DNA of 17,649 nt from the NCBI GenBank assembly GCA_902766655.1, contig CACXEL010000060.1:1-17649 (forward strand), read 5' to 3'. This document shows positions 1,937 to 4,421 of this stretch, one piece after another (the stretch's first letter is position 1; each line of letters opens with the position of its first letter). Source of the stretch: an uncultured Lachnospiraceae bacterium. GTDB taxonomy: Bacteria; Bacillota; Clostridia; Lachnospirales; Lachnospiraceae. A program made the position numbers and the translations under genes. Under the pieces are notes generated by a model. The model saw only the letters and a program-made list of their open reading frames with translations, was not told the origin of the DNA and did not search any database.

Positions 1937-2776
1937 ATGATCTCCATTTTCGATCTGGAAAAGCTTCAGATCCTGCTCAGGGATTTCTATGAGCTCAGCC
2001 ATATCCGCATCACGGTCTTTGACGAGAACATGACCGAGCTGATCTCCTACCCCGCGAACGTGGCGCCTTACTGCTCGGTGATTCGCTCCGTCCGGGAGGG
2101 ACTTGACGCCTGCATGGCCTGCGACCGGAAGGCATGCTCTGCCGCCTCCAGGCGGCGGGGGACCTACGTGTACCGCTGCCATGCCGGCCTGACCGAGGCG
2201 GTGGCGCCTTTGTTTGTGGACGATGTGCTGGCCGGGTACCTGCTCTTCGGGCATGTGTTTTCATTTCCCAACCACGAGGAGGGGTGGGAAGTGATCCGCG
2301 CACACTGCAGCGGTCTGCATCTCGACGAGGAGGCGCTCCGGGAGGAGGTCTTCCGGGCAGTGCCCACGGAGGAGTCCAGGATCCGCTCCGCGGCCCACAT
2401 CCTTCACGCCGTGGCCTCCTACCTGATCCTGGAGCGGATGGCGACGCTCAAGCAGGACATGCTGGCAGTGCGGCTCAATACCTACCTGACGGCCCATCTC
2501 ACGGAAAAGGTCAGCGCCGCGGTAATCGCGGACCATCTGGGAATAGGAAAGACACAGCTCTACGAACTCTCGCAGCAGCTCTATGGATGCGGAATTGCGC
2601 AGCAGATCCGGACCATGCGAATCGAAAAGGCAAAAAAGCTCCTGGCCGGGCCGGACAAACTGCCCATCACGCGGATCGCCTCCGAATGCGGCTTTGCGGA
2701 TTACAACTATTTCATCACCGTCTTCAGCCGCGAAGCCGGCATGCCGCCAGCCCTCTGGAGGAAGACGGCCAGGTAG
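1937..2776 (+). CDS. PocR-domain AraC family transcriptional regulator
   Basis: The 279-residue protein has an N-terminal PocR ligand-binding domain (about residues 5-170) and a C-terminal AraC-type double helix-turn-helix (about 180-279). The PocR part shows the usual Cys-rich stretch (PYCSV, then CMACDRKAC, then YRCHAGLTE) and the hydrophobic VDDVLAGYLLFGHVF segment. In the HTH part, ITRIASECGFADYNYFITVF is the characteristic second helix-turn-helix. PocR was first described in the regulator of propanediol and cobalamin genes, and the domain senses small metabolites. GGGAGG precedes the ATG by about 8 nt. The gene is divergent from the mutarotase/isomerase pair and is its most likely regulator. 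A modest promoter candidate is TTGATT (1810-1815) with TATGGT 16 nt later. Confidence 0.88.
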   Translation: MISIFDLEKLQILLRDFYELSHIRITVFDENMTELISYPANVAPYCSVIRSVREGLDACMACDRKACSAASRRRGTYVYRCHAGLTEAVAPLFVDDVLAGYLLFGHVFSFPNHEEGWEVIRAHCSGLHLDEEALREEVFRAVPTEESRIRSAAHILHAVASYLILERMATLKQDMLAVRLNTYLTAHLTEKVSAAVIADHLGIGKTQLYELSQQLYGCGIAQQIRTMRIEKAKKLLAGPDKLPITRIASECGFADYNYFITVFSREAGMPPALWRKTAR

Positions 2777-2815: not shown

Positions 2816-2844
2816 TTGCCTTCACCGGACGGAGGTGGTATACT
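2816..2844 (+). promoter_or_regulatory. Promoter of the MATE transporter leader
   Basis: TTGCCT (2816-2821) and TATACT (2839-2844) are separated by exactly 17 nt, matching the sigma-70/sigma-A consensus in 4/6 and 5/6 positions. Transcription would begin near 2851, immediately before the structured leader. Confidence 0.65.
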
Positions 2845-2850
2845 CTCCAC

Positions 2851-2941
2851 CGTTGAACTGAACAGGTCATCGGAGGAGAGGGCATCGCAATGCCCGGACC
2901 CGCCAGGGTCCGTCTCGATAAGATGTCGGGTGCGCCCGGTT
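2851..2941 (+). ncRNA. Structured 5' leader, riboswitch-like, class not identified
   Basis: Between the promoter and the intrinsic terminator lies an RNA that folds compactly. Two adjacent 6-bp hairpins (GGGCAT/ATGCCC at 2880-2895 and GGACCC/GGGTCC at 2896-2911, both with 4-nt loops) are enclosed by GAGA/TCTC (2876-2879 with 2913-2916), then an internal loop GGAG against GATAA, then CATC/GATG (2868-2871 with 2922-2925). A possible basal helix pairs AACTG (2856-2860) with CGGTT (2937-2941). CGGTT is also part of the 5' arm of the terminator, so the two folds exclude each other, as in transcription-terminating riboswitches. If the basal helix forms on ligand binding, the switch would be ON. The 5' end (ACTGAACAGG) loosely recalls NiCo riboswitches from memory, but the remainder does not clearly match, so no class is assigned. 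Confidence 0.5.
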
Positions 2942-2970
2942 ATTGTCAATAACCGGGCGCACTTTTTTTT
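2930..2970 (+). terminator. Intrinsic terminator upstream of the MATE gene
   Basis: GTGCGCCCGGTTATTG and its perfect complement (2930-2962, nominal stem 16 bp, so the real loop is larger) are followed by eight T residues. It stands 25 bp before the MATE start codon, after a promoter and a folded leader, so it is most likely an attenuator rather than the end of the upstream regulator gene alone. Confidence 0.88.
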
Positions 2971-2995
2971 CTGCGTTCAAAAGGTGGGATAGAAC

Positions 2996-4345
2996 ATGAA
3001 AAAACAGATTGATTTTACAAGCGGAGGCATCGTCCTGCCTTTGCTCAAGTTTGTAGGCCCGGTGCTCTTCGCTCTTTTTCTCCAGTCCATGTACGGTGCC
3101 GTGGACCTCATGATCGTAGGCAAATTCGCCATGGCGGCGGACGTGTCGGCGGTCTCCACCGGCGCCCAGATCATGATGACCCTCACGGGACTCATCAGCT
3201 CCCTGGCCATGGGTATGACTATCCTGATCGGTGAGAAGATCGGCGAGAAAAAGCCAGAGGAAGGCGGCCGGTTCGTGGGCGGCGGCATCGTGCTCTTTAT
3301 CATCATAGGCATCCTCATGACCCTTCTCACGGTGCTTCTTGCGCCGCAGCTGGCCGGGATCATGCACGCCCCCGATGAAGCCTTCGCCTGCACCACCGAT
3401 TACATCCGGATCTGCGGCGGAGGTACCCTGGTCATCATCGCCTACAACCTGATCGGAAGCATTTTCCGGGGGCTGGGGGATTCGGGCACGCCCCTCATGA
3501 CCGTCTTCATCGCCTGCGTATGCAATATTGCCGGCGATCTTTTCCTGGTAGCGGGCCTTGGCATGGGGACCAGAGGAGCCGCCATCGCCACGGTGGCTGC
3601 CCAGTTCGTGAGTGTTGTCATTTCCCTCCTGATCATCCGCCGGAGGGAGCTTCCCTTCCAACTGAGCCGGGCGAGCGTGCGGTTCGACCTCAGGATCATC
3701 CGTCTGATCCTCTTTCTGGGGACACCGATCGCCCTTCAGGACCTACTGGTGGGCATCTCCTTCCTGGTCATCATGGCCATCGTCAACTCCCTCGGCCTTA
3801 TCAGCTCCGCGGGCGTGGGCGTGGCGGAGAAGGTTTGCGCCTTTATCATGCTGGTGCCCATGTCCTTCATGCAGTCCATGTCCGCCTTCGTGGCCCAGAA
3901 CAAGGGAGCGGGAAAGTCGGACCGCGCGGTCCGGGGCCTTCTGTACGCCATCGGAATATCGACCCTCTTCGGCGTCGCCATGTTCTTTCTGGCCTTCTTC
4001 CGCGGAGACCTGCTGGCGGGTATCTTCGCCAATGATGCGGAGGTCATCGCAGCGGCGGCCCTCTACCTCAAGGCCTATGCCATCGACTGCCTGCTGACCT
4101 GCTTCCTCTTCTGCTTTGTCGGCTTTTTCACCGGCATGGAGTACACCCGCTTTGTCATGGTCCAGGGCATCCTGGGGGCCTTCGCGGTCCGCATTCCCGT
4201 CGCCTTCCTCATGAGCCGGCGGGTGCCGGTCTCTCTCTTCCTCATCGGACTGGCAACCCCCTGCTCCACCCTGCTGCAGATCACGCTCTGCTTTGTCTGC
4301 TTTGCCATGTGGAGACGGCGGGAAGGAGGAAACAAGGCGTTTTGA
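2996..4345 (+). CDS. MATE family efflux transporter
   Basis: The 449-residue, strongly hydrophobic protein has about 12 predicted membrane helices arranged as two MatE repeats (about 15-175 and 235-395). Typical segments are GPVLFALFLQSMYGAVDLMIVGKF near the N-terminus, GSIFRGLGDSGTPL around 155 and MSFMQSMSAFVAQNKGAGKSDRA around 295. Family members export cationic drugs, dyes or metabolites across the cytoplasmic membrane using a Na+ or H+ gradient; the substrate here is unknown. A purine-rich site (AAGGTGGGA) precedes the ATG. Expression is probably controlled by premature termination in the leader, which suggests induction by a small ligand the pump relieves. The last three codons lie inside a 41-bp inverted repeat, and the stop codon TGA coincides with the element's apparent boundary. 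Confidence 0.92.
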   Translation: MKKQIDFTSGGIVLPLLKFVGPVLFALFLQSMYGAVDLMIVGKFAMAADVSAVSTGAQIMMTLTGLISSLAMGMTILIGEKIGEKKPEEGGRFVGGGIVLFIIIGILMTLLTVLLAPQLAGIMHAPDEAFACTTDYIRICGGGTLVIIAYNLIGSIFRGLGDSGTPLMTVFIACVCNIAGDLFLVAGLGMGTRGAAIATVAAQFVSVVISLLIIRRRELPFQLSRASVRFDLRIIRLILFLGTPIALQDLLVGISFLVIMAIVNSLGLISSAGVGVAEKVCAFIMLVPMSFMQSMSAFVAQNKGAGKSDRAVRGLLYAIGISTLFGVAMFFLAFFRGDLLAGIFANDAEVIAAAALYLKAYAIDCLLTCFLFCFVGFFTGMEYTRFVMVQGILGAFAVRIPVAFLMSRRVPVSLFLIGLATPCSTLLQITLCFVCFAMWRRREGGNKAF

Positions 4346-4421
4346 GAGGCAGGGACGGACCTTTTTTCTCAAAAATCAAGGATTTTTGAGAAAAAAGGTC
4401 CGTCCCTGCCTCTCAAAACGC
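4337..4421. repeat. Long palindromic element, copy 1
   Basis: The 41-bp arms (4337-4377 and 4381-4421) are perfectly complementary and separated only by AAG. The core GGGACGGACCTTTTTT followed by TCTCAAAAATC recurs in the element at 17078-17164 and partly in that at 5718-5790. It fills the gap between the convergent MATE and nuclease-like genes. The left arm includes the last nine bases of the MATE gene; GCGTTT, from that gene, is repeated in inverted form at the outer end of the right arm. The T-runs are inside the stem, so it is not a standard intrinsic terminator, although it may still block convergent transcription or stabilise 3' ends. Confidence 0.9.

What the first reader, a model, noticed from the sequence alone, without database searches (positions are those of the whole stretch)
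2816..2995. Possible unassigned riboswitch controlling a MATE efflux pump
A 17-nt-spaced promoter is followed by about 80 nt of RNA with a three-way-junction-like fold, then a perfect terminator with eight U residues, then the MATE gene. A possible 5-bp basal helix (AACTG with CGGTT) uses bases of the terminator's 5' arm, giving mutually exclusive folds and predicting an ON switch. I cannot match it confidently to a known class; the 5' end loosely resembles NiCo riboswitches but the inner sequence does not clearly fit, and MATE pumps are not the usual NiCo targets.
Basis: partly seen in the sequence, partly recalled or inferred. Interest (0 to 1): 0.72.

Follow-up and report, generated by a model that had tools for sequence, protein, structure and literature searches.

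The report
Unnamed RNA switch before efflux pumps
The stretch of RNA ahead of this drug-efflux pump gene belongs to a strongly conserved, apparently uncatalogued family of RNA switches found in front of efflux-pump genes of many gut-type bacteria, so an unidentified chemical signal probably turns these pumps on.

Summary
Window 2865-2944 is one copy of a conserved RNA (P1, P2, P3 with a CGCA loop, optional P3b, P4 with a UGCG loop), followed by a terminator that reuses P4. No Rfam 15 family reaches its curated score on it. There 121 of 123 untruncated copies carry the matching 5' half; shuffled upstream DNA gives 2. Over 96 copies 98.1% of pair cells are standard and 12 of 16 pairs have compensatory changes. 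First downstream ORFs are mostly MATE (35 of 104), ABC exporters (28) and cytidylate-kinase-like proteins (12). Related leaders join the domain to different terminators. Best reading: a new class of transcriptional ON riboswitch that senses an unknown compound and induces efflux. Not shown: ligand, binding, switching. I could compare with guanidine-IV and Gd4v only through positions printed in papers.

The parts
2816..2844 (+). sigma-70-like promoter, TTGCCT-17-TATACT
   Evidence: pattern scan, 9 of 12 matches; expected start of transcription about 2851 (inference)
2865..2944 (+). conserved aptamer-like domain
   Evidence: covariance-model match, 54.6 bits with R1 (window not in R1), 62.2 bits with R2 (the window is one of the 96 rows of R2); only copy found in the window's genome, next best E 1.77
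2868..2871 (+). P1 5' strand CATC, pairs with 2922-2925
   Evidence: fold; near-invariant in relatives, with compensated TATC/GATA (L092) and CACC/GGTG (L095) copies
2872..2875 (+). conserved unpaired GGAG, 5' side of the internal loop
   Evidence: G 85, G 95, A 95, G 89 of 96 rows
2876..2879 (+). P2 5' strand GAGA, pairs with TCTC 2913-2916
   Evidence: fold; P2 covaries in relatives
2880..2895 (+). P3 hairpin, loop CGCA at 2886-2889
   Evidence: fold; all five model pairs of P3 show changes on both sides; loop CGCA, CGUA or CGGA in 112 of 149 unique rows with a stem of four or more
2896..2911 (+). P3b hairpin, optional in the class
   Evidence: fold; absent or of variable sequence and length in relatives
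2917..2921 (+). linker GATAA, 3' side of the internal loop; its last two A are in 96 of 96 rows
   Evidence: inside the search pattern for the rows fetched by it
2922..2925 (+). P1 3' strand GATG
2926..2939 (+). P4 hairpin, CGGG-UGCG-CCCG core 2927-2938, loop 2931-2934 complementary to the P3 loop
   Evidence: fold; third pair G-C 55, A-U 35, G-U 6 of 96; free pattern positions GC 79, AT 38, GT 7, AC 1 in 125 pattern hits
2930..2962 (+). terminator stem-loop (2930-2944 with 2948-2962), overlaps P4
2963..2970 (+). run of eight T (U-tract)
   Evidence: sequence
2996..4345 (+). MATE-family efflux transporter, 449 aa
   Evidence: PF01554 E 6.6e-48, TIGR00797 over its cut-off

Best explanation
2865-2970 is one member of a class of cis-acting RNA switches. 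Transcription starts just upstream; the 5' part folds into a P1-P2-P3(-P3b) domain and a P4 hairpin, whose CGNA and UGCG loops can kiss. When an as yet unknown compound binds, this domain is held together and keeps the bases of P4, so the terminator (which needs the same bases) cannot form, and RNA polymerase reads on into the MATE gene. Without it the terminator wins and the pump stays off. Shown by comparison: the conserved domain, its helices, the overlap with the terminator, the efflux genes downstream. Inferred: small-molecule sensing, the ON direction, the kissing contact, export of the inducer or a related compound.
For: Strong covariation in 96 copies (98.1% of pair cells standard, 12 of 16 pairs changed on both sides, 0 of 500 shuffles reach any of the five measures, slid versions 28-45% paired); RNAalifold on the same alignment finds the same four helices. 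Retrieval with the 3' half alone finds the 5' half in 121 of 123 copies. Unpaired nucleotides are nearly invariant although P3 varies freely. Non-homologous first genes with one theme: of 104 distinct first ORFs 35 MatE, 28 ABC_membrane, 12 Cytidylate_kin2, 6 YunG-like, 3 GNAT. Different terminators: in 95 of 149 rows (weak hits included) the terminator arm overlaps P4 only, in 12 it reaches the P1 3' strand or linker, alone (6) or with P4 (6, two of which, L182 and L247, lie mostly on P4); in the sister group the GCYGGATAA terminator itself covaries. In L192, L206 and L221 (Bacteroidota) the terminator uses the P1-side strand, yet GTGCGCCCGGTTA stays the same, so that sequence is not kept only for the usual terminator; these copies were, however, fetched by that very sequence.
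Against: No binding or termination data. A5 is fitted to the model, and most rows were fetched by an exact 23-base pattern, which inflates conservation of the 3' half. The loops hardly vary, so the kissing contact has no covariation support: five copies have CGGA, one CGAA and one CACA against UGCG, and seven have UGAG (five of these with a CGNA P3 loop), each leaving an unpaired position. P1 is nearly invariant in A5. 26 of 149 rows showed no or only a weak terminator in my simple search, among them two Bacteroidota copies (L186, L208) that may work on translation or not at all. 16 of 111 sites with enough downstream sequence had none of the expected gene families.
Confidence: 0.75

Rival explanations
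1. Already described class: the element belongs to the guanidine-IV / Gd4v superfamily, or to a motif in supplements I could not read, and the ligand is guanidine or the unknown Gd4v ligand.
For: Guanidine-IV and Gd4v are two hairpins joined by a loop-loop pseudoknot with a terminator, are ON switches or proposed ones, lie before MATE and GNAT genes, and Gd4v is enriched in guts (PMC7736828, PMC9788692). A group of distant relatives here precedes GNAT (L028, L100, L163) and MATE genes (L064, L095). In the sister group P4 sits on top of the terminator, as the D2 hairpin does in Gd4v.
Against: Printed guanidine-IV landmarks are absent: loop-2 G66-U67 with G72 six further on (97% each), kissing A29-U72 and C30-G71; this class has CGNA with UGCG and no conserved G-U-N4-G there (compared by eye). 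Guanidine-IV is most often before sugE and Gd4v over 50% before a transaminase; neither family is among the 25 listed of 30 Pfam families found for 104 first ORFs. R2 finds nothing significant in six SMR loci, best E 0.28, though none of these is an authenticated guanidine-IV.
Confidence: 0.13
2. Ribosome-mediated attenuation: a short peptide is translated in the leader and a stalled ribosome (for example under an antibiotic) blocks the terminator.
For: In the window an ATG (2890) opens a short frame into the terminator (read). Seven tandem loci have a small frame with a W/C-G/E-R-S/P-P-P peptide before the second copy.
Against: The P4 G-C to A-U exchange would change encoded residues but keeps the pair. 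Hairpin 1 varies in length and sequence. Copies with CCGCAG loops lack that ATG. Bacteroidota copies have a promoter-like TANNTTTG beginning 12-13 nt before the aptamer, 5 of 5 against 0 of 106 others, leaving little room for a frame. The PP peptide is seen in 7 of 122 members.
Confidence: 0.06
3. A protein, not a small molecule, binds the leader and prevents termination.
For: MarR, Rrf2, PocR-like or histidine-kinase genes lie near some copies, and conserved loops can be protein sites.
Against: I saw no regulator common to the loci (MarR_2 in 2 and Rrf2 in 1 of 104 first ORFs); the same RNA occurs in Bacillota and Bacteroidota; a conserved internal loop plus complementary loops is typical of an aptamer (inference).
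Confidence: 0.08
4. An ordinary constitutive attenuator or read-through terminator without a sensor.
For: The terminator alone is very stable.
Against: A bare terminator does not need an upstream domain conserved across phyla with covariation and near-invariant unpaired bases.
Confidence: 0.03

Closest known systems
Guanidine-IV riboswitch (GGAM-1, mepA motif)
   Same: Two hairpins with complementary loops, terminator platform, ON logic, MATE genes among its targets (PMC7736828, PMC11611296)
   Different: Different loop sequences and printed invariant positions; its binding structure is said to include the terminator stem, while here P4 and the terminator exclude each other; sugE is its main target, a family not among those listed here
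Gd4v motif (guanidine-IV variant, ligand unknown)
   [quoted passage not shown])
   Different: Said to be extremely similar in sequence to guanidine-IV, which this class is not by the printed positions; mainly before a transaminase; no authentic sequence was available to compare
yjdF (azaaromatic) riboswitch
   Same: Binds many unrelated toxic-type compounds, a possible model for what is sensed (PMC4793209, listing and start of abstract only)
   Different: Another RNA: reported almost exclusively before yjdF, and no yjdF match here
Guanidine-I riboswitch (Rfam RF00442)
   Same: Lies before exporter genes
   Different: No match in the window; Rfam found it in 3 of 20 SMR loci instead

Membership tests
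Riboswitch (kind) | conserved structured domain in the 5' leader supported by covariation | tested here: met
Riboswitch (kind) | expression platform mutually exclusive with the conserved domain | tested here: met
   by sequence and fold only:
Riboswitch (kind) | direct binding of a small molecule or ion by the RNA alone | not testable with these tools
   needs in-line probing or similar
Any Rfam 15 family, NiCo included | score at or above the curated gathering score | tested here: not met
   window and two sets of 20 loci gave tRNA only; pieces of the window and of L206 at E up to 10 gave only hits below the gathering score (best mir-31 E 0.00012, 28 against 51 bits, on the long terminator hairpin of L206)
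Guanidine-IV riboswitch | loop-2 G66, U67 and G72 (Lactococcus numbering), kissing A29-U72 and C30-G71 (C. botulinum numbering) | tested here: not met
   compared by eye with the A5 conservation table using positions printed in the papers; no authentic sequence aligned
Guanidine-IV riboswitch | sugE (SMR) as most common downstream gene | tested here: not met
   SMR not among the 25 listed of 30 Pfam families for 104 first ORFs
Guanidine-IV riboswitch | binds guanidine | not testable with these tools
   no assay
Gd4v motif | over 50% before a PLP transaminase | tested here: not met
   no aminotransferase among the 25 listed of 30 families
[quoted passage not shown]
   P4 lies inside the terminator of the sister group, but in the window P4 and the terminator share bases
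Gd4v motif | sequence match to the published alignment | not testable with these tools

The most novel reading that the evidence does not exclude
A so far unnamed riboswitch class, spread over Bacillota, Bacteroidota and probably Spirochaetota, senses one toxic compound (or family) that is common in animal guts, through a P1/P2 internal loop closed by a P3-P4 loop-loop contact, and switches on MATE pumps, heterodimeric ABC exporters and a cytidylate-kinase-like enzyme that may modify the same compound; tandem copies with a Pro-Pro leader peptide combine this sensor with a second signal.
Probability: 0.5. Interest if true: 0.85.

Novelty: new variant of a known kind. Interest (0 to 1): 0.74.

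Why it matters
Efflux pumps with unknown natural substrates are hard to study. A sensor RNA shared by MATE, ABC and kinase-like genes gives a direct handle: find what the RNA binds and one learns what many gut bacteria pump out. It would add a riboswitch class missing from Rfam 15, one that is easy to test with a short RNA and a transcription assay.

Tried and rejected
Rejected: NiCo and other Rfam families. Not supported: AACTG/CGGTT helix. Leader peptide as the general mechanism: unlikely.

Taken back: from memory I first took the element for guanidine-IV (note), and in my notebook I wrote that SMR leaders L137, L139 and L156 are guanidine-IV and that Rfam 15 lacks that family. On re-checking, their spacing does not fit the printed positions (G66, U67, G72), and a pattern scan of the SMR loci found nothing convincing; both statements are withdrawn. 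I do not know whether Rfam 15 holds guanidine-IV.

Led nowhere: plasmid search for sugE leaders (744 records, the ten most frequent genera all proteobacterial); viral contigs (0 stretches); the ten literature searches listed no description of this motif; supplements and most subscription papers could not be read.

Dropped or limited rows: L160 was cut at wrong coordinates and is not in the class counts. 27 of 149 unique rows fail the P4 or P1 criteria and are not among the 122 members; L165, which is among them, looks like a false member. The gene tallies draw on 80 of the 119 pattern stretches (65 of these loci remain after identical aptamers are counted once) plus the covariance-model loci; several contigs were fetched by both routes. 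ORFs are mechanical calls. The counts include the ten sequences R1 was built from. Alignment A5 was fitted to the model. The shuffles keep only base composition.

Full report
WHAT WAS CLAIMED. The parts are there: promoter TTGCCT-17-TATACT, terminator 2930-2962 with T 2963-2970, -28.6 kcal/mol, z -6.9, MATE gene 2996-4345 (PF01554, E 6.6e-48; TIGR00797 over its cut-off). Rfam 15 finds nothing but a tRNA elsewhere in the window, and at E up to 10 only hits far below their curated scores.

RELATIVES. A plain DNA search of 397 genomes of the same family (19 genomes with a match) returned leaders with the same letters ...AAGATGTCGGGTGCGCCCGGTTAT... and a variable hairpin before them. A covariance model of ten of them (R1) found 52 matches at E up to 1e-6 in 397 family genomes (the ten included), 3 in 348 phylum genomes, own included, and 7 in 146 order genomes, own included. 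At E up to 0.01 the family tally is 81 of 397 genomes, but that tail is mixed. The window's genome (76% complete) shows only this copy: the next best is E 1.77. Viral contigs gave none. The equal lengths of G348:C26 and CALWQP010000026.1 (Mediterraneibacter) and of G062:C11 and CAKNLF010000011.1 (Roseburia), both genomes of the window's family, suggest that this family is Lachnospiraceae (inference).

STRUCTURE. In the 119 stretches there are 125 pattern hits; 2 are truncated. Of the 123 others 121 have the CATCNGAG signature upstream, where shuffled upstream DNA has it twice, and 117 have a P3 hairpin with a CRNA or TGCA loop. The two pattern positions left free (R and Y) pair in P4: GC 79, AT 38, GT 7, AC 1. 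On 96 aligned copies (A5) 98.1% of pair cells are standard, 12 of 16 pairs have changes on both sides and 236 cells are double changes (shuffled 75.8); sliding the partners drops pairing to 28-45%. RNAalifold on the same alignment predicts the same helices. A5 is fitted to the model, so these numbers lean towards it. P1 hardly varies in A5; compensated copies (TATC/GATA, CACC/GGTG) occur outside it. The fold of window 2865-2944 alone is this structure, with P3b as third arm. Unpaired GGA (85-95 of 96), the AA before P1 (96 of 96), UGCG (94-96) and GUUA after P4 (90-95) are conserved; the last three lie within the search pattern for the rows fetched by it.

LOOPS. The P3 loop is CGCA in 90 of the 149 unique rows with a stem of four or more, CGUA in 17, CGGA in 5; the P4 loop is UGCG in 115 and UGAG in 7 with a stem of three or more. 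CGCA and UGCG are complementary, so a kissing contact is plausible, but the pair hardly varies and there is no covariation for it.

PLATFORM. In 95 of 149 rows the terminator 5' arm overlaps P4 only, as in the window; in 12 it reaches the P1 3' strand or linker, alone (6) or with P4 (6); 26 had none or a weak one in my search, 14 could not be typed and 2 lay downstream. A sister group of weaker matches (L098, L103-L109, L112-L115, L166, L167, with L161, L162, L096 and L125 as bridges) keeps P1 and a P4 hairpin but uses a GCYGGATAA/TTATCCRGC terminator; on 17 of these sequences, MAFFT-aligned, P1, P4 and the terminator are 96.9% paired with double changes at 7 of 17 pairs (L115 was not in that alignment). 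Two platforms on one sensor domain, both in conflict with it, are what a riboswitch would show (inference).

GENES. Of 122 members 11 end within 700 nt of a contig end; of the other 111 the first recognised family within 3.5 kb is ABC in 37, MATE in 35, cytidylate-kinase-like in 13, YunG-like in 6, MarR in 2, GNAT in 2, none of these in 16; median distance 39 nt. The ABC label there comes from sequence similarity and includes at least one ABC-F protein (L188). Direct Pfam scans of 104 distinct first ORFs give MatE 35, ABC_membrane 28, Cytidylate_kin2 12, YunG-like 6, Acetyltransf_1 3; 13 members had no ORF of 110 aa starting within 700 nt. These families are unrelated to each other, so the leader is not carried along by one gene family.

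ALTERNATIVES. A translated leader is unlikely as the general rule: the P4 exchange is neutral for pairing but not for any peptide, hairpin 1 changes length freely, and the five Bacteroidota copies have a TANNTTTG box (recalled as the Bacteroidota -7 motif) beginning 12-13 nt before the aptamer, 5 of 5 against 0 of 106 other members. Seven tandem loci do have a small frame with a conserved Pro-Pro peptide before the second copy; that is a separate observation.

KNOWN CLASSES. The nearest published RNAs that I found are guanidine-IV and its variant Gd4v. I read the Results and Discussion of PMC7736828, parts 1-4 of 6 of PMC9788692, and abstract, two sections and passages of PMC11611296. The printed guanidine-IV positions and pairs do not fit this class and the gene associations differ, but I had no authentic sequence of either to align, so the negative rests on printed positions only. 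Of PMC11109978, PMC8632094 and PMC2965389 I saw passages, which describe no such motif; their supplements were out of reach. Ten literature searches listed no description; that is not proof of absence.

VERDICT. A real, widespread RNA class that I could not find catalogued (about 0.95 that it is a functional conserved RNA; 0.75 that it is a ligand-sensing ON switch as described; about 0.13 that it is already described under another name). Ligand, binding and switching are untested.

Noticed in passing
L091, L176, L177, L205, L215, L234, L245: Two copies of the aptamer lie in series, 110-385 nt apart, before ABC exporter genes in six loci (L177 has no downstream sequence); between them a short frame carries a conserved W/C-G/E-R-S/P-P-P peptide whose R-x-P-P begins 35-48 nt before the second copy.
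   Followed up: partly
L098, L103-L109, L112-L115, L166, L167: A sister leader (CATCGGAGGG ... GCYGGATAAGATG ... TTATCCRGC + T) with other loops; in all 14 the first ORF falls in the MATE cluster. No Rfam match to the leader in the 12 of these loci scanned.
   Followed up: partly
L028, L064, L095, L097, L100, L163: A third variant with an extra conserved insert (GGGGAT...GCAGGCCGC) between P3 and P2; first ORFs include GNAT (L028, L100, L163) and MATE (L064, L095) genes. It might bear on the Gd4v question.
   Followed up: no
L137, L139, L156, upstream of SMR genes: Leaders with a hairpin-like GCCG element and a terminator hairpin whose loop holds UAGGCC, not matched by Rfam at gathering; unassigned (first taken for guanidine-IV, then withdrawn).
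   Followed up: partly
window 4337-4421: A perfect inverted repeat with 41-bp arms (4337-4377 and 4381-4421, 3-nt spacer) at the end of the MATE gene, before the convergent next gene; perhaps a two-way terminator or a small mobile repeat.
   Followed up: partly
L188:3756-5420: An ABC-F type ATPase (ABC_tran twice, ABC_tran_Xtn) behind a cytidylate-kinase-like gene and one aptamer copy; ABC-F proteins often protect ribosomes (recalled), a hint at the kind of inducer.
   Followed up: no
window 1937-2776: A PocR/AraC-like regulator gene on the same strand directly before the leader (partial NCBIfam matches below cut-off); it could act on the pump promoter.
   Followed up: no
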